A DNA stretch of 36,347 bases from a virus. Location of the stretch: the IMG/VR virus record IMGVR_UViG_3300044639_002063, positions 1-36,347 of that record; one strand, written 5' to 3'. Shown here one piece after another: positions 2 through 36,347 of the stretch. The stretch's first letter is position 1; the number at the start of each line of letters is the position of its first letter. The notes beneath the pieces are model-generated. The model had not been told where the DNA came from, did no database searches, and worked only from the letters and a program-made list of their open reading frames with translations. Both the position numbers and the translations under genes were made by a program.

Positions 2-1435
2 TTTGAAATTTGGCAAAACGGAATACTTGTTAATCAGGAGTCACATTCGCGTGACTATCAAAAATTGCTCGAGACTAATATCCTAAAATTGAATCATAAG
101 AGTTTCCACCAGGTTGTCGTGCTTGGTAGTAGTAACTTTATTCCCTTTATGCAACTTAGCACTCATCATCGTCGTGAGGTTATTGAGGATCTATTAGACA
201 TTGGTGTGTTTAGCAAAATGAACTCAGTGCTAAAGGAAAATTCAGCAAAACTTAAGGATGGCATAAAGGACACCGAAAATCAACTCTTTACCTTAAAAGA
301 AAAAGTTGATTTGCAGAAAAAACATATTTTGCATTTACAGCAGTTAAATGAAAGCAACGCTGCAAAATATTCTGATGAGATAGAGAGTCTGCAAAGTGAT
401 ATTTCTAATATGGAGACGGAAAATTTATCTTTAAGCGCGGAGTATAGCGAGGCGTATGGCAAGACCCAAAGCCAATTGGGACGGCATGAAAAAACAAAAG
501 CTTCGTTGCTATCTTATGAGAGGCAAATAAAGGACAACATTAAGAAAATTGTTTCTGACTCTCAGTTTTATGAAAATAATACTGAGTGCCCAACATGCAA
601 CCAAAACATAGATTCGGACCTTCGTGAGCATAAGATTGCTGGGTGCAAACATAGTGCTCAAGAATTAATTTCTGGGTATGACAAGCTTAAGGAGTCATTA
701 ACTCAAACCGGAGACTCGATACAAGAGGTGACGTCTGAGTTAAAAAGACTAAACAGCATTCACAATAAGATACACAGCAACCAGAATCTAGTTAGTGGAC
801 TTGAAAAGCGAATCATTGATTTGACTACACTGATGAACACACACTATGAAACATTGGAAGTCTCTGGCGCTCAGTCTTCTCTTGACACTCTGCTTAACGA
901 AAGAGAGACCTTTCAAGAATTAAAGTCATCGCAACTTGAAGAGAGAATGTACAATGAGATTCTTGCTGAATTACTAAAAGACACTGGAATAAAGACTAAG
1001 ATTATTCGTCAATATCTGCCAATTATGAATAAACTCATAAATCATTATCTGCAGATTTTAGACTTTTTTGTTTCGTTTACGCTCGACGAGAATTTTACTG
1101 AGATGATACGCTCACGTCATCGCGATGATTTTTCATACAGTTCATTTAGTGAGGGAGAAAAACAACGAATTGATTTAAGCCTACTCTTTGCATGGAGACA
1201 GGTCGCAAAGATGAAAAACAGCAGCAACACAAACCTGCTTATACTCGACGAGGTATTTGACGCAAGTCTTGACTCTGACGGCATTGATAATCTACTTAAG
1301 ATTATGAATACACTGGATTCTGACACGCGCATATTCGTGATTAGTCATAAGCAGGATTTACTAGAAGGCAAGTTTGAACAAAAAATTGAGTTTGAAAAGG
1401 TGAAAAACTTCACTCGGATTAAAGAAATGGCTTAA
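2..1435 (+). CDS. 46: Recombination endonuclease subunit gp46 (SbcC/Rad50-like), 5'-truncated by window
   Basis: This is the ATPase subunit of the gp46/gp47 (Rad50/Mre11-like) complex, which resects DNA ends in recombination-dependent replication. The frame is open from base 2, so the N-terminal Walker A part lies upstream of the window. Visible here are the family stretch SFHQVVVLGSSNFIPFM, long coiled-coil arms, a zinc hook Cys-Pro-Thr-Cys (bases 587-598), the ABC signature FSEGEKQR (about 1140-1165) and Walker B LLILDEVFD with a following SHK switch (about 1237-1350). The arrangement and wording of the C-terminal third closely follow T4 gp46. A TTG at base 65 is not a real start, because the homology continues upstream of it. 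It heads the T4-like replication cluster. The gene is followed by a 105-bp gap containing a promoter. Confidence 0.95.
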   Translation, partial: FEIWQNGILVNQESHSRDYQKLLETNILKLNHKSFHQVVVLGSSNFIPFMQLSTHHRREVIEDLLDIGVFSKMNSVLKENSAKLKDGIKDTENQLFTLKEKVDLQKKHILHLQQLNESNAAKYSDEIESLQSDISNMETENLSLSAEYSEAYGKTQSQLGRHEKTKASLLSYERQIKDNIKKIVSDSQFYENNTECPTCNQNIDSDLREHKIAGCKHSAQELISGYDKLKESLTQTGDSIQEVTSELKRLNSIHNKIHSNQNLVSGLEKRIIDLTTLMNTHYETLEVSGAQSSLDTLLNERETFQELKSSQLEERMYNEILAELLKDTGIKTKIIRQYLPIMNKLINHYLQILDFFVSFTLDENFTEMIRSRHRDDFSYSSFSEGEKQRIDLSLLFAWRQVAKMKNSSNTNLLILDEVFDASLDSDGIDNLLKIMNTLDSDTRIFVISHKQDLLEGKFEQKIEFEKVKNFTRIKEMA

Positions 1436-1502
1436 ATTGTCACTCCCGAACCCTTTGGTGGCTTACTTTTCTCACTTTTTTTCACAAATCGTCATTTTTT
1501 TA

Positions 1503-1531
1503 TTTACATTAGCAGGTTTTCTTGCTATAAT
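1503..1531 (+). promoter_or_regulatory. sigma70-like promoter for the CobT-like gene
   Basis: TTTACA (1503-1508), a 17-bp spacer and TATAAT (1526-1531) preceded by TG-n (extended -10). The ATG at 1541 is only 9 nt after the -10 hexamer, so the transcript would be leaderless or nearly so. It belongs to the recurring promoter family of this window. Confidence 0.75.
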
Positions 1532-1540
1532 AGATTCATA

Positions 1541-3754
1541 ATGACTGCCACCGTTAATCGTGAATCTCAAACAAAGCTAGCAAAGTTGCTGGCTAAGGAA
1601 AATATTCAAGTAAGCATTGGGAACTATCATACTGCATTCTTCGACGTTAAGAACAGGATTTTGGGTTTGCCGCTGTGGAACACCGACAACAAGAATGTTT
1701 CTGACTTGTTAATTGGTCATGAGGTTGGACATGCTCTATACACTCCGGAAGATGCAATTACTCGATTCAAAGAGGAGTTTCCTAATATCCCATTCGATAT
1801 TGGAAATATTGTTGAGGATGTTCGTATTGAACGTCTGATTCGCAAAAATTATCCAGGTCTCGTTTTCTCCTTTAAGGAAGGGTATAAACATTTTATTCAG
1901 ACAAACCTTTTTGAAATTGCTGATAAGGATGTTTCCACTTTAAGGTTTGTCGATCGTCTTAACCTCCGTGCTAAAGTCGGAAATATTGTAGATATTCCTC
2001 TTAACGAAGAGGAGACTGTTATATATGACCGCTGTGTCTCTGCTGAAACTTATGATGAGGTTTTAGAAATTTGTAAAGACATCATTGAGATGATTAAGGA
2101 CGAAAAGAAAGACGACTCACAACAATCTGGCACAGATAGTGAGCAGTCGATGCCCTCTAATGACGAGTCTAACAACGAGGGTGATGAAGGCGATACTGAA
2201 GACGAGGCTGATGAAGGTAAGTCTACTGATGACGAGTCTAAACCCAAAGAATCGAATTCCTTGAGTGACAATTCTCAACAAAATGCAAATGATGAGTCGA
2301 ATGATGACACCGAAAAGGAAGAGTATCCGGCTCTCAACGAGGAGTTACGCTCAAAAACTTTAAGTGCTGCAGAGGAAAATATTAAAAATTTGCAAGATGA
2401 AACAATCACGTCCCATCTCGCAAATCCTCCCAATATTGAATATATGATGTCGAGAGTTGTTCCAATTAAAGAGATTATGTTGGAGCGTAGAGTTGACTTG
2501 GTTCGATATAACAGAGTCATGACATGTCCTGATGTGATTGCTGATTGGAATGCATTTAAGTCGGCAACTAAATGTCACATTGCGACACTAATAAAGGAAT
2601 TTGAACGCAGGAAAGCAGCTTATCAATATTCCCGCGCTGCCCGGTCAACAACTGGAACGATTGACGTAAACAGATTGCACTCTTATAAGTTTGAAGATCA
2701 AATATTTAAAAGTGTCACTCGCCTTGCAGACGCTAAAAATCATGGAATGGTTTTCTTTATTGACTATTCTGGTTCAATGTCAGGAACTATTAGTATGGTA
2801 GCCAATCAAACTCTTCAACTTGTAGCCTTCTGTAAAGCAGTTGGAATTCCATTTGAGGTCTATGGATTTACTTCATCTTATTCTGCATATGGAGAAGTTC
2901 ATGAAAGTGTGGCGTCAGCTCCAGGTCGTAGCATTAATTTTTCAAATACCAGTGTGTTTGAGTTGCTAAATTCAGCAATGAAAAAAACTGATTTTGAACT
3001 TGCTTGCCGAGAACTTAAAGCCCAATTCTCATACCTCCGCACAGACTATTCTTCACCAATGATGGCACTCGGTGGCAAGTATGAGATTATGAATGGCACC
3101 CCACTCAATGAAACTATCATTATTGCCCATGAAATTGTACGGCGATTTAAAGCACGACATAATGTTCAAAAAATGAATACGATTTTCCTAACTGATGGAG
3201 ATGGTTGTGGTGTGCAATTTCATACAAACGACACCGCGAAAGAGTTTGAACGCGAACCAGACAATAAATGGAACTGCGGAATTACTGTTCCGGTCTTTGG
3301 TACAAATATTAAATTTAATCGCAAAGAGCGCGACATTTATGCTGCACTCATTCAAAATTTGAAAACTAGTTGCAATACCACCGTAATTGGATTCTTTATT
3401 GCTAACTATAGATCTGACTATAAGAACAGTTGTATTAATGCATTAATGTACACCAAAAAACAACCCATGGGCTGGAGTGAAGCAGTTAATGCATTTAGTT
3501 CTATGCAAAGGACAGCAAAAAAAGAAAAATGTTTGCCAATCGTGGGTGGATTTAATTATGACATCTATTTTGTATTTGATTCAAAAAATAACCTAGACAT
3601 TAACGAGGATGAGGAATTCATGAGTGACGGCTTTGGAAAGAACCTGACCGAAAGTTCCTCTCAGAATAAACTTGCCCGCGATTTTACCAAATTCAACACT
3701 GAAAAGAAGGTTTCTCGCGTGTTTTTGAACAAATTCGCTGAATTTATTGCATAA
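1541..3754 (+). CDS. CobT-like protein: N-terminal zincin motif plus C-terminal vWA domain
   Basis: 737 residues in three parts. Residues 60-64 are HEVGH, a zinc metallopeptidase motif, with a possible third ligand in NIVEDVRIERL about 40 residues later. Residues about 185-265 form a very acidic D/E/S-rich linker. The C-terminal half is a von Willebrand A domain with a complete MIDAS: DYSGSM (D408), a conserved Thr in GTPLNET, and LTDGDG (about 551). An acidic linker followed by a vWA domain is the layout of CobT, the cobaltochelatase subunit that partners the AAA+ protein CobS, and the next gene encodes such an AAA+ protein. No CobN is present, so a cobalamin role is doubtful. Inference: the pair is a MoxR-vWA remodelling machine with a possible protease activity, placed between gp46 and gp45. 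It has its own promoter. Confidence 0.8.
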   Translation: MTATVNRESQTKLAKLLAKENIQVSIGNYHTAFFDVKNRILGLPLWNTDNKNVSDLLIGHEVGHALYTPEDAITRFKEEFPNIPFDIGNIVEDVRIERLIRKNYPGLVFSFKEGYKHFIQTNLFEIADKDVSTLRFVDRLNLRAKVGNIVDIPLNEEETVIYDRCVSAETYDEVLEICKDIIEMIKDEKKDDSQQSGTDSEQSMPSNDESNNEGDEGDTEDEADEGKSTDDESKPKESNSLSDNSQQNANDESNDDTEKEEYPALNEELRSKTLSAAEENIKNLQDETITSHLANPPNIEYMMSRVVPIKEIMLERRVDLVRYNRVMTCPDVIADWNAFKSATKCHIATLIKEFERRKAAYQYSRAARSTTGTIDVNRLHSYKFEDQIFKSVTRLADAKNHGMVFFIDYSGSMSGTISMVANQTLQLVAFCKAVGIPFEVYGFTSSYSAYGEVHESVASAPGRSINFSNTSVFELLNSAMKKTDFELACRELKAQFSYLRTDYSSPMMALGGKYEIMNGTPLNETIIIAHEIVRRFKARHNVQKMNTIFLTDGDGCGVQFHTNDTAKEFEREPDNKWNCGITVPVFGTNIKFNRKERDIYAALIQNLKTSCNTTVIGFFIANYRSDYKNSCINALMYTKKQPMGWSEAVNAFSSMQRTAKKEKCLPIVGGFNYDIYFVFDSKNNLDINEDEEFMSDGFGKNLTESSSQNKLARDFTKFNTEKKVSRVFLNKFAEFIA

Positions 3755-3776
3755 AAAGTGAATTTTTTATCACTTT
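3755..3776 (+). terminator. Weak hairpin between the CobT-like and CobS-like genes
   Basis: AAAGTGA and TCACTTT form a 7-bp stem around an 8-nt A/T loop, directly after the TAA at 3752-3754, and end just before the next promoter. There is no proper T-run, so termination would be weak. Confidence 0.3.
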
Positions 3777-32653: not shown

Positions 32654-33730
32654 ATGTCATCTGTACTTGAAAAACTAAAAAAGAATTGCCGAATTAAAGA
32701 AGCCGACGTCCTTGCTGACAGTGACTTTTACTCTGAAAAAGACATTACGAGCACAAGCGTGCCAATGGTTAATGTTGCATTAGGTGGTAGCATTGATGGT
32801 GGACTAACAAGTGGATTGACCGTACTTGCTGGTCCATCAAAACACTTTAAGACCAGTTTTGCATTGCTTATGGCAGGCGCATACCTGAAAAAACATCCAG
32901 ATGCTTGTCTTATGTTTTATGATAGCGAATTTGGATCACCTCAACAATATTTTGAAAGCTTTGGCATTGATACCAAACGAGTGTTGCATATTCCAATTAA
33001 AAACATTGAAGAACTCAAGTTTGATATTGTAAATCAGCTTGAGCAGATGGACCGCAAGGACAAGGTAATTATTGTTATTGACAGTGTTGGCAACCTTGCA
33101 TCCAAAAAGGAATTGGAAGATGCAATGAATGAAAAGAGCGTGGCTGATATGACTCGTGCTAAAGCTCTTAAGGGATTGTTCCGTATGGTAACGCCATACC
33201 TTACAATGAAAAACATTTGCTTGCTTGCAATTAACCATACCTATCAGACTCAGGAAATGTTTAGCAAAGCTGTTGTGAGTGGCGGAACTGGAATTATGTA
33301 TAGTGCCGACAACGTTTGGATTATTGGTCGCCAACAAGATAAAGACGGAACCGAGATTCAAGGCTATCACTTTATTATTAACGTTGAAAAGTCTCGATTT
33401 GTTAAAGAAAAAAGTAAGATTCCAATTAGTGTGTCATGGGAAGGCGGTGTCCAAAAATGGAGTGGTCTTCTTGATATTGCTATTGAAGGAGGGTTTGTAA
33501 TTAAGCCTAAAAACGGCTGGTATGTTGCGTATGATCCAGCAACAAAAACTGAATTGTCGGGAAATACACGAGCAGCACAAACAATGACAAAGGAATTTTG
33601 GGAAACTGTCTTTACTAAAACAGCATTTGCGGCACACATTAAGAAAAAATATACGATTGGGTTGAGAGAGATGATTAGCGATGATGCTAGTGTCAAAGAA
33701 GAGGTTAGCGAAGTTGGCGAAACTGAATAA
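32654..33730 (+). CDS. uvsX: RecA-like recombinase UvsX
   Basis: 358 residues (T4 UvsX 391). Walker A is GPSKHFKTS (residues 60-68), followed by LMFYDSEFGSP (T4-like MFYDSEFG), Walker B VIIVIDSVGN, and the DNA-binding-loop and ATPase region MTRAKALKGLFRM, LAINHTYQTQEMFSKAVVSGGTG. The C-terminus is acidic. It polymerises on single-stranded DNA for recombination-dependent replication with gp46/47 and gp41. Position upstream of gp40 and gp41 is T4-like. Confidence 0.97.
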   Translation: MSSVLEKLKKNCRIKEADVLADSDFYSEKDITSTSVPMVNVALGGSIDGGLTSGLTVLAGPSKHFKTSFALLMAGAYLKKHPDACLMFYDSEFGSPQQYFESFGIDTKRVLHIPIKNIEELKFDIVNQLEQMDRKDKVIIVIDSVGNLASKKELEDAMNEKSVADMTRAKALKGLFRMVTPYLTMKNICLLAINHTYQTQEMFSKAVVSGGTGIMYSADNVWIIGRQQDKDGTEIQGYHFIINVEKSRFVKEKSKIPISVSWEGGVQKWSGLLDIAIEGGFVIKPKNGWYVAYDPATKTELSGNTRAAQTMTKEFWETVFTKTAFAAHIKKKYTIGLREMISDDASVKEEVSEVGETE

Positions 33731-34331: not shown

Positions 34332-34638
34332 ATTTATGCCAAGCGAAATAACTGACTATATATTTGTAGACGACTCATCAAATGATAAGGTATATGGGAT
34401 ACGACTCGTTAGCGGGCCGTATGTCGGCACAATATACAAGTATGCAAAAATAAAACTAAATGAGGACCCGCAAAAAGACGTGTGTACATTATCGTATGCA
34501 TATAATATAATATCTACAGCAGAGACACACTGCAAAGAATCTTTGCACCGCGACAACGTCTTTAAAAATTATATTGGAGACGTATTGTCTGATATACTTT
34601 TAAATCAAGAATATAAAATAGGAAAACATGGAGAATAG
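34312..34638 (+). CDS. 40: gp40-like head vertex assembly chaperone
   Basis: 108 residues, T4 gp40-sized (about 114). Pattern DYIFVDDSSNDKVYGIRLVS, then GPYVGTIYKYAKIKL and a C-terminal VFKNYIGDVLSDILL resembles T4 gp40 (G-x-x-K-G-V, K-x-Y-I-G-D-I-L). The location between uvsX and gene 41 is diagnostic. gp40 helps assemble the gp20 portal vertex. It overlaps the oxygenase gene by 20 nt and gene 41 by 11 nt. A promoter-like sequence lies within its coding region. The assignment relies more on position and pattern than on strong identity. Confidence 0.65.
   Translation: MEIHVTKFMPSEITDYIFVDDSSNDKVYGIRLVSGPYVGTIYKYAKIKLNEDPQKDVCTLSYAYNIISTAETHCKESLHRDNVFKNYIGDVLSDILLNQEYKIGKHGE
34483..34511 (+). 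promoter_or_regulatory. Promoter candidate for gene 41 inside the gp40-like gene
   Basis: TGTACA (34483-34488), 17-bp spacer, TATAAT (34506-34511), 116 nt upstream of the gene 41 ATG. It fits the family exactly but is within coding sequence. Confidence 0.5.
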
Positions 34639-35269
34639 CCTTCAAGACATCATAATTAAAAATTTAGTAAACAACGAACCATTTTGTCGTAAAACATTAC
34701 CACACCTAAAACCAGAATATTTTGAAGGACATCATAAAGCAATATATGGTCTCGTACTGCAATTTATTACAAAATATAATAAGTTACCAAACTCTTCAGC
34801 ACTTGCAATCGAGTTTCAACAGTCTGAGCATGTTAATCGTGGAGACTCTGGTGCGATTGCCCATACAATTACTACACTAAATGAGAATTATTCTGTAGAG
34901 CATGAGTGGCTGCTAACGCAGACAGAAAAGTGGTGTAAAGATCGCGCAGTTCATCTTGCGATTATAGAAGCAGTTTCTATTATTGATGGTCGGTCTCCAG
35001 ATCAGGCAGAAGGCGCAATTCCAAACATACTTAGCAAGGCATTAAGTGTAACATTTGATACAAATGTTGGTCATGACTATCTCGAAAATATAAATCAGCG
35101 ATATGAGTTTTATCACAAGACCGAAGATAAAATCCCATTTGATCTTGAGATGTTTAATACAATTACTGGTGGAGGCATCCCTCGTAAAACACTAAACATT
35201 ATCCTTGCAGGCTGTGTTCACCCTGAGACTCCAATTCGAGTAAGGATTCATAAGAAAATTCTTTCTTAG
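34628..35269 (+). CDS. 41: gp41 replicative helicase, N-terminal extein fused to ultra-short N-intein
   Basis: 213 residues. Residues 1-195 follow the N-terminal part of T4 gp41, the DnaB-type helicase that unwinds the fork with the primase: HEWLLTQTEKWCKDRAVHLA, ALSVTFDTNVGHDYLENIN, KIPFDLEMFNTITGGGIPRKT and LNIILAG. In T4 the sequence continues directly into the P-loop (AGVNVGKS). Here Cys196 follows Gly195 and the frame ends after CVHPETPIRVRIHKKILS. That tail resembles the first strand of a Hint domain (C-V-x-x-x-T-x-I/V), so it is probably an N-intein of only about 18 residues. The helicase cannot work alone in this form; the missing motor domain would come from downstream by protein trans-splicing. 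It overlaps the convergent HNH gene by 71 nt. Confidence 0.88.
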   Translation: MENSLQDIIIKNLVNNEPFCRKTLPHLKPEYFEGHHKAIYGLVLQFITKYNKLPNSSALAIEFQQSEHVNRGDSGAIAHTITTLNENYSVEHEWLLTQTEKWCKDRAVHLAIIEAVSIIDGRSPDQAEGAIPNILSKALSVTFDTNVGHDYLENINQRYEFYHKTEDKIPFDLEMFNTITGGGIPRKTLNIILAGCVHPETPIRVRIHKKILS

Positions 35270-36014
35270 ACCGCTTACGATCTGGTTGGTAATTTGGTGC
35301 CTTTCCTAATTGCCAACCACGCAAAAGCAATTCAAATATTTTCTCGGTTTGAATACGAAATGTTTTCTCTCCATTATTTACATATTCCTTGCCGCCGTCT
35401 TTCATACCATATTGCCACCCATCATCTATTTTTTTGCTAATTTCGCTATATAGACATCGTGTTATTACATCATCTTTATGGATCCATACTTTTCCGACGT
35501 GCGATTTTCCCCCCAAACTTGCTCGAGTTGATCTCCCCTCACGAGTGGCCCAATATGTCCATGGGTTATTAGGTGAAACTATTGAAGCTTTTCCACCCAG
35601 TGAAGCAAATTTTGAAAAGTTTTCTGGATTATGAATGCCAGTTTCTCTTTCTTTTGCCATTTTACCATTTCTTCGTGAAATTTCTGCCTTCTCTTCTTTG
35701 CTAAATGAAAACATTCCTATTTTATTTTCATAACACCATTTACCAACAATACTCCGCTGTTCGTATGTTAACTTTGCCCCCAACATATGCATTGATCGCA
35801 AATCATTAGCCATTCCATGAATTTTCCATAATAAGAAATGGGCAATTATATGATGTCTAATACTAAGATAAGTAAAATTACTCTCGTCTTCTCCTCCGCC
35901 AGCATGTCGTGGGATGATATGATGTTTATGTATGTTTGATCCTCTACAATAATGAATTTTGTTATTTACATTTTCATTACATAGGTTATAATAGAGTTGA
36001 GAGTAAAATTTCAT
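35199..36014 (-). CDS. HNH homing endonuclease, convergent with gene 41
   Basis: 271 residues from the ATG at 36014 on the minus strand; a longer start at 36059 is possible. The HNH motif is IHKHHIIPRHAGG (H31-H32), with N46 and H55/H59 following in SNFTYLSIRHHIIAHFLLW, typical of phage HNH endonucleases. The C-terminal half has repeats of the DNA-binding type VWIHKDDVITRCLYSE...KIDDGWQYG and RIQTEKIFELLLRGWQLGKA, found in free-standing phage HNH enzymes. It lies between the two halves of an intein-split gp41 and would spread the insertion by cutting intact gene 41 alleles. The only sizeable minus-strand gene in the window, with a late-type TATAAATA 30 nt upstream of this start. Confidence 0.9.
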   Translation of the reverse strand: MKFYSQLYYNLCNENVNNKIHYCRGSNIHKHHIIPRHAGGGEDESNFTYLSIRHHIIAHFLLWKIHGMANDLRSMHMLGAKLTYEQRSIVGKWCYENKIGMFSFSKEEKAEISRRNGKMAKERETGIHNPENFSKFASLGGKASIVSPNNPWTYWATREGRSTRASLGGKSHVGKVWIHKDDVITRCLYSEISKKIDDGWQYGMKDGGKEYVNNGEKTFRIQTEKIFELLLRGWQLGKAPNYQPDRKRSKKEFSYESLLELESQGEHSLQG

Positions 36015-36043
36015 GAGATTGATTCCCGTTCCGGCTAAAATTA

Positions 36044-36051
36044 TATTTATA
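36044..36051 (-). promoter_or_regulatory. T4-type late promoter candidate for the HNH gene
   Basis: TATAAATA on the minus strand, 29 nt upstream of the ATG at 36014. It would exclude the longer start at 36059 from the transcript. Confidence 0.45.
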
Positions 36052-36067
36052 CAAATCACACCTTTAT

Positions 36068-36347
36068 ATGACTGAAAAAACTATTAAAATTAAAGAAGTT
36101 GAAACTTTGCTAAACGAAGGATACACTATAGAAGTAGATTCTCCAGATGGATTTGTTCCAGTATCAGCATTTGTTGATAAAGGAATGTGGGAAGAATATA
36201 TTCTACTTCTTAATAGCGGCAAAGTTATCCGAGTTAATGAAAATCATTTGTTTGAAACTGTTGATGGTTGGCAATATGCTAAAGATCTCGTACATAAAAA
36301 ACAAGAATACTTAACTGAAGATGGGTATCAAATTGGTATCGTTACGA
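36068..36347 (+). CDS. 41: C-intein of split gp41 (Hint domain), 3'-truncated by window
   Basis: At least 93 residues to the end of the window. It begins MTEKTIKIKEVETLLNEGYT, then IEVDSPDGFVPVSAF, YILLLNSGKVIRVNENHLFE and TVDGWQYAKDLVHKKQEYL. The last two are the Hint block B pattern (S/N-x-N-H-x-F-x-T...G-W-x-x-A-x-D-L), with the N-x-x-H active-site pair. The first half provides strands that in a normal intein belong to its N-terminal part, complementing the 18-residue N-intein of the upstream fragment. This arrangement matches atypically split inteins known from environmental phages. The end with His-Asn and the rest of gp41 (P-loop and motor) should lie just outside the window. No Shine-Dalgarno sequence precedes the ATG. 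Confidence 0.82.
   Translation, partial: MTEKTIKIKEVETLLNEGYTIEVDSPDGFVPVSAFVDKGMWEEYILLLNSGKVIRVNENHLFETVDGWQYAKDLVHKKQEYLTEDGYQIGIVT

What the first reader, a model, noticed from the sequence alone, without database searches (positions are those of the whole stretch)
34628..36347. gp41 helicase split by an ultra-short-N split intein, with a convergent HNH homing endonuclease between the halves
Seen: the gp41 frame reaches LNIILAG at the entry of the P-loop, then reads CVHPETPIRVRIHKKILS and stops (35267-35269). A minus-strand HNH gene follows. At 36068 a plus-strand ORF carries the rest of a Hint domain, including VNENHLFETVDGWQYAKDL. Known: phage genes fractured by split inteins with an intervening endonuclease occur in environmental data, including gp41 helicases, and atypically split inteins with N-parts of about 16-25 residues are documented (AceL-TerL, VidaL). 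Inference: this is such a system with an 18-residue N-intein, splitting an essential helicase exactly in its ATP-binding loop so that helicase activity depends on trans-splicing. The convergent endonuclease overlapping the N-fragment by 71 nt is an unusual arrangement.
Basis: partly seen in the sequence, partly recalled or inferred. Interest (0 to 1): 0.95.

Follow-up and report, generated by a model that had tools for sequence, protein, structure and literature searches.

The report
Split helicase intein with homing nuclease
A T4-like phage has its replication helicase gene cut in two inside the ATP-binding loop by a protein-splicing element whose first piece is only 18 residues, with a DNA-cutting "homing" gene wedged between the halves that appears to carry a decoy copy of its own target beside its promoter.

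Summary
The gp41 helicase frame stops after an 18-residue N-intein inside the Walker A loop, a convergent HNH gene follows (71-nt overlap), and a C-intein ORF runs off the contig. An overlapping contig (L002, identical over 1,263 nt) supplies the end: the C-intein finishes SSHN and continues as TGCGKS plus the rest of gp41. A second contig (L028) is the same phage without the element: 4,887 nt identical on the left, 5,911 of 5,913 on the right. The 1,222-nt insert sits exactly at LAG^TG and the only two SNPs lie within 15 nt of it, as homing with co-conversion would leave. Relatives carry this intein contiguous, split by this HNH family, split by other nucleases, or split with the nuclease decayed or gone. 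It is an atypically split (S1-type, VidaL-like) intein with a convergent HNH homing endonuclease: a new variant of a known kind. Splicing, cleavage and repression are inferred, not measured.

The parts
34628..35212 (+). gp41 helicase N-extein, ending ...LNIILAG at the entry of Walker A
   Evidence: PHROG 19 DnaB-like helicase E=8.7e-38; 100% identical to empty allele L028 up to 35211
35213..35269 (+). N-intein CVHPETPIRVRIHKKILS plus stop (18 aa)
   Evidence: the contiguous relative L003/L007 shares CVHPETPIRVR and then continues into the intein
35199..36014 (-). HNH homing endonuclease gene (271 aa from ATG), convergent, 71-nt overlap with the N fragment
   Evidence: phrog_655 homing endonuclease 7e-14; HNH motif invariant in the family
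36024..36047 (-). Target-site copy in the HNH leader: AATATAATTTTAGCCGGAACGGGA reads NIILAGTG, matching gp41's empty junction; core TTAGCCGGAACGGGA at 36038-36024
   Evidence: 0 mismatches to the degenerate target; 0.01 expected at <=2 mismatches in 36 kb
36044..36051 (-). T4-late-promoter-like TATAAATA upstream of HNH
   Evidence: by itself no more frequent in the window than chance; present upstream of 45 of 49 distinct HNH relatives
36068..36347 (+). Start of the C-part ORF (C-intein; cut by the contig end). Completed in L002: 122-aa C-intein ending SSHN, then TGCGKS and the gp41 C half
35212..36347 (.). Mobile insert: 1,222 nt in all, absent from L028; left boundary at 35211/35212, right boundary beyond the contig end (L002:1349)

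Best explanation
The locus is a mobile, atypically split class-1 intein in the Walker A loop of gp41 helicase. gp41 is made as two polypeptides: extein plus 18-aa N-intein, and 122-aa C-intein plus extein. They associate and trans-splice, using Cys1, the terminal Asn and Thr+1, to give intact helicase (inferred). Between the halves lies a convergent HNH homing endonuclease. It cuts intein-free gp41 genes at or near LAG^TG, and repair copies the intein halves and HNH together into the gap (inferred; the empty/filled pair and the edge SNPs are the trace that is shown). HNH is driven by its own late-type promoter. A wobble-degenerate copy of the target beside that promoter probably serves as an operator that HNH binds to repress itself, as I-TevI does (inferred, less certain).
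For: Full C half with SSHN^TGCGKS in L002. Exact empty-site allele L028 with 10.8 kb of near-identical flanks and two junction-proximal synonymous SNPs. Contiguous mini-intein at the same site (L003/L007, 99% aa identical over the C-part). AF2 of the contiguous form pLDDT 95.5, with the split falling between strands 7-12 and 15-21. Best PDB match VidaL 6vgv by sequence (4e-10) and by fold (TM 0.88). 49 distinct HNH relatives, 46 with the same intein C-part and P-loop extein beside them. Nuclease-decay and clean-loss alleles. Target copies: 11 of 13 distinct non-P-loop matches to the 14-nt core in about 1.24 Mb of distinct sequence lie in convergent-HNH leaders, and a 12th lies beside the promoter of a codirectional HNH relative.
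Against: No biochemical data: splicing, cleavage and repression are untested. Block B has NENH where the common motif is TxxH. 28 of 49 HNH leaders carry a hairpin instead of the target copy, so operator mimicry cannot be general in the family. No cultured phage with this gp41 intein was found.
Confidence: 0.85

Rival explanations
1. The gp41 gene is a broken pseudogene and the phage uses another helicase.
For: The frame is interrupted by a stop and an inserted gene.
Against: Both halves are intact in many contigs. The 270 nt shared with L007 differ at 8 positions with 99% aa identity. Catalytic intein residues are invariant. One gp41 per contig in eight relatives.
Confidence: 0.03
2. The HNH-bearing insert is a self-splicing intron removed at RNA level, restoring a contiguous intein.
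For: Phage HNH genes often live in group I introns (general knowledge).
Against: No Rfam match in 35000-36347 even at E<=1. Relatives L066, L164 and L165 are split by only some 20-45 nt with no room for an intron. The C part has its own start codon.
Confidence: 0.03
3. The target copy in the HNH leader is a relic of an old insertion, an N-terminal coding extension, or chance, not an operator.
For: In the window clade it is in frame with HNH and could be read as MICINIILAGTG.... Only some HNH lineages have it.
Against: It tracks the promoter (2-8 nt in most, 12 in L266) rather than the ATG. Third-codon-like positions vary in all five codons while first/second positions are nearly fixed. Chance enrichment P about 7e-27 (rough).
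Confidence: 0.3
4. HNH homes independently of the intein and merely splits it; the intein moves by other means.
For: Contiguous and HNH-free alleles exist. L007 has 97% intein identity inside 90% flanks. At least 3, and by parsimony 10, cis/split changes on the intein tree.
Against: The target copy matches the intein-free gp41 junction, not the intein interior. The L028/L002 pair gained or lost intein and HNH together.
Confidence: 0.12

Closest known systems
VidaL atypically split intein (PDB 6vgv; 16-aa N part, S1 split; PMC13014065)
   Same: Closest solved relative by sequence and fold; cysteine-dependent; split after strand beta2; ultra-short N part
   Different: About 28% identity in the fold alignment; here the insertion site is gp41 Walker A, with an HNH gene, and with empty and contiguous alleles known around it. 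VidaL's own host gene was not checked here
Fractured genes with split inteins and free-standing endonucleases (Dassa et al. 2009; cited in PMC13014065 and PMC6892783; the paper itself is not held)
   Same: A phage gene divided by split-intein halves with an endonuclease gene between; gp41 among the hosts (from memory)
   Different: HNH rather than the new endonuclease family described there (from memory); convergent; ultra-short N part; P-loop site
I-TevI transcriptional autorepression (reviewed in PMC2988022)
   Same: A homing-site-like sequence overlapping or adjoining a late promoter of the endonuclease gene
   Different: HNH, not GIY-YIG; associated with a split intein, not a group I intron; binding not tested here
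uvsX split intein of Pseudomonas phages PA5oct/MIJ3 (unannotated)
   Same: P-loop site, 17-aa N part CLPETAKVKIRLSKKQS, related C-intein (39% identity), nuclease-like gene between
   Different: Host gene uvsX; a different, codirectional nuclease

Membership tests
Naturally split class-1 intein, atypical S1 split (VidaL/PolB16 type) | Catalytic Cys1 at the start of the N part | tested here: met
   CVHPETPI...
Naturally split class-1 intein, atypical S1 split (VidaL/PolB16 type) | Terminal His-Asn and Cys/Ser/Thr at +1 | tested here: met
   SSHN^T in L002; SSHN invariant in 33 relatives
Naturally split class-1 intein, atypical S1 split (VidaL/PolB16 type) | Block B TxxH | tested here: inconclusive
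   NENH: His invariant, Thr replaced by Asn
Naturally split class-1 intein, atypical S1 split (VidaL/PolB16 type) | N part of 15-37 aa, split just after beta2 | tested here: met
   18 aa; strands 7-12 and 15-21 in the contiguous model; range from PMC13014065
Naturally split class-1 intein, atypical S1 split (VidaL/PolB16 type) | Hint fold | tested here: met
   pLDDT 95.5; Foldseek VidaL E=3.9e-11, TM 0.88, on the contiguous relative
Naturally split class-1 intein, atypical S1 split (VidaL/PolB16 type) | Trans-splicing activity | not testable with these tools
   needs expression of both halves
Fractured gene | Two host-gene halves with split-intein parts flanking a free-standing endonuclease gene | tested here: met
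HNH homing endonuclease | HNH catalytic motif | tested here: met
   HxHHIxPxH...N...H invariant in the family; Pfam HNH only 15.8 bits, below its 21.4 cut-off; phrog_655 homing endonuclease 7e-14
HNH homing endonuclease | Element occupies its own target; empty alleles exist | tested here: met
   L028 versus L002/window
HNH homing endonuclease | Site-specific cleavage of the empty allele | not testable with these tools
   needs a cleavage assay
I-TevI-like autorepressing endonuclease | Homing-site-like sequence overlapping or adjoining the endonuclease promoter | tested here: met
I-TevI-like autorepressing endonuclease | Endonuclease binds it and represses transcription | not testable with these tools
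   needs binding and reporter assays

The most novel reading that the evidence does not exclude
The HNH endonucleases of this split-intein family regulate themselves by operator mimicry. A copy of the host gene's most conserved codons (Walker A, LAG^TG), tolerant at wobble positions, sits against the late promoter, so the enzyme that hunts P-loop sites also shuts off its own gene. Other lineages carry a conserved leader RNA hairpin in place of this switch.
Probability: 0.55. Interest if true: 0.72.

Novelty: new variant of a known kind. Interest (0 to 1): 0.62.

Why it matters
The locus gives a rare natural series at one site: empty, contiguous intein, split with nuclease, split with decayed nuclease, split with none. 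It includes a pair differing over 10.8 kb only by the element and two edge SNPs. That makes the question of how split inteins arise and persist directly testable. The target copy extends the I-TevI autorepressor idea to HNH enzymes and split inteins, and hints at which bases the enzyme reads. The many natural 14-20-aa N-inteins are also candidates for protein semisynthesis.

Tried and rejected
RNA intron: Rfam at E<=1 found nothing. Pfam and NCBIfam are weak on the bare intein, so identity rests on alignment, terminal motifs and fold. One script failed on alignment rows and one leader-hairpin pattern was too strict; both were corrected. I first read the target copy as a relic of insertion; that became less likely once it was found promoter-anchored and out of frame in other lineages. 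Whether contiguous L003/L007 is ancestral or a secondary fusion is unresolved: it nests among split forms, but branches within that clade are weak. Dassa 2009 is not held. Library searches for a T4-like-helicase VidaL intein by name gave nothing useful; I recall, unverified, that Neugebauer et al. 2017 named one, so priority for the split intein itself is not claimed. Leaders in the enrichment figure were sized roughly, so P=7e-27 is an order-of-magnitude statement, and the hits are not phylogenetically independent.

Full report
Observation. gp41 runs from 34628 to ...LNIILAG, then CVHPETPIRVRIHKKILS and a stop at 35267-35269. The HNH gene on the minus strand ends at 35199, inside the N fragment. 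The C-intein ORF begins at 36068 and runs off the contig. The window is a complete linear IMG/VR record.

Completion. L002, a different IMG/VR contig, is identical over 1,263 nt and continues. The C part is a 122-residue C-intein ending HRYYTDGVSSHN, then TGCGKSLGM and the rest of gp41.

Homing trace. L028 is the same phage with an uninterrupted gp41. It matches the window over 4,887 nt without a difference up to the junction, and L002 beyond it over 5,913 nt with two differences, at positions 9 and 15 of the right extein, both synonymous. A 1,222-nt insert at the exact junction with the only SNPs beside it is what gene conversion from a donor leaves. Under uniform placement two such SNPs have a probability near 8e-6. 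Assembly of mixed strains cannot be fully excluded without reads, but both alleles must exist.

What the intein is. Relatives at the same site are contiguous in L003/L007 (136 aa), L021, L146, L149 and others. AF2 on L003 gives pLDDT 95.5, with the split region in the turn between strands 7-12 and 15-21. The nearest solved structure is VidaL by sequence and by fold. Published natural atypical splits have N parts of 15-37 residues, and VidaL and PolB16 are split at this same position (PMC13014065). Fold, split position and terminal residues fit that family. Block B reads NENH rather than TxxH.

Allelic series. Among 46 distinct inteins, 22 are split by a convergent nuclease, 15 contiguous, 3 split by a codirectional nuclease, and 6 split with no full nuclease. 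Among loci of the last kind, L069, L075 and L186 hold HNH remnants, L066 and L164 show none, and L165 keeps only a trace of the antisense promoter. The intein tree needs about 10 cis/split changes, 3 of them forced by well-supported branches. Direction is not settled. L016 carries two split inteins in gp41, leaving the gene in three pieces.

The HNH family. The convergent nucleases compared are one family. Of 49 distinct proteins found, 46 have the intein C part with a P-loop extein beside them, and 45 have TATAAATA upstream. Overlap with the N fragment is usual; 71 nt is long.

The leader. In the window, AATATAATTTTAGCCGGAACGGGA on the HNH strand reads NIILAGTG, gp41's empty junction; every codon but GGA differs synonymously from the L028 site. 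The degenerate target pattern matches here with no mismatch and nowhere else in 36 kb with up to two; 0.01 was expected. The same core follows TATAAATA closely in L159, L178, L194, L245, L262, L264, L266 and L268, and appears without an exact TATAAATA in L212, L215 and L249. In L159, L178 and L194 it is out of frame with HNH. In L160, whose nuclease is codirectional and only about 30% identical, a copy lies just upstream of TATAAATA in the opposite orientation to the nuclease. Across 15 distinct copies, third-codon-like positions vary in all five codons and the others are nearly fixed. Outside P-loop genes, 11 of 13 distinct core matches lie in convergent-HNH leaders and one more is the L160 copy. 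I-TevI's operator, 15/20 identical to its homing site and overlapping its late promoter, is the precedent (PMC2988022). I infer autorepression; binding is untested.

A second leader type. 28 of 49 HNH leaders have instead a hairpin: 6-bp outer stem, C[AG]C, 4-bp inner stem, 6-7-nt loop, C or T, closing stem, then usually TCTA. Both stems covary strongly. In all loci held, a strict form of it was found only upstream of these HNH genes or in the equivalent place, and five loci gave no Rfam match above a gathering score. The two leader types do not occur together.

Verdict. [quoted passage not shown] a new variant of a known kind. The allelic series at the P-loop site and the promoter-linked target copy are what a specialist would find worth testing.

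Noticed in passing
L020, L070, L174, L190, L209, L213, L247 and others, between TATAAATA and the HNH start: A covarying leader hairpin (outer 6 bp, C[AG]C, inner 4 bp, 6-7-nt loop) found only upstream of these HNH genes; no Rfam family matched in the five loci tested.
   Followed up: partly
L129 (NC_071039.1, PA5oct) 754-3760: uvsX of PA5oct appears to be split at its P-loop by a 17-aa N-intein with a nuclease-like gene between; the N part is annotated as a hypothetical protein. MIJ3 and eight other Pseudomonas phage records match the C part. A cultured model.
   Followed up: partly
L016 4552-8807: gp41 in three pieces: the P-loop split intein plus a second split intein at TDTSE^SFGLPATADL with another nuclease-like gene.
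   Followed up: no
L007 3090-4467: A close relative has its uvsX interrupted by a different split intein with an HNH-like gene; uvsX in the window (32654-33730) is intact.
   Followed up: no
L186 3694-4408: Truncated HNH remnant between intein halves whose end keeps a CTAGCTGGA trace near an antisense ATAAATA, possibly a decayed target copy.
   Followed up: no
phages collection: Roughly 280 further isolate phage records (Salmonella, Klebsiella, Escherichia, Dickeya; terminase large subunit in most of those listed) hold a distant relative of this intein at about 34% identity.
   Followed up: no
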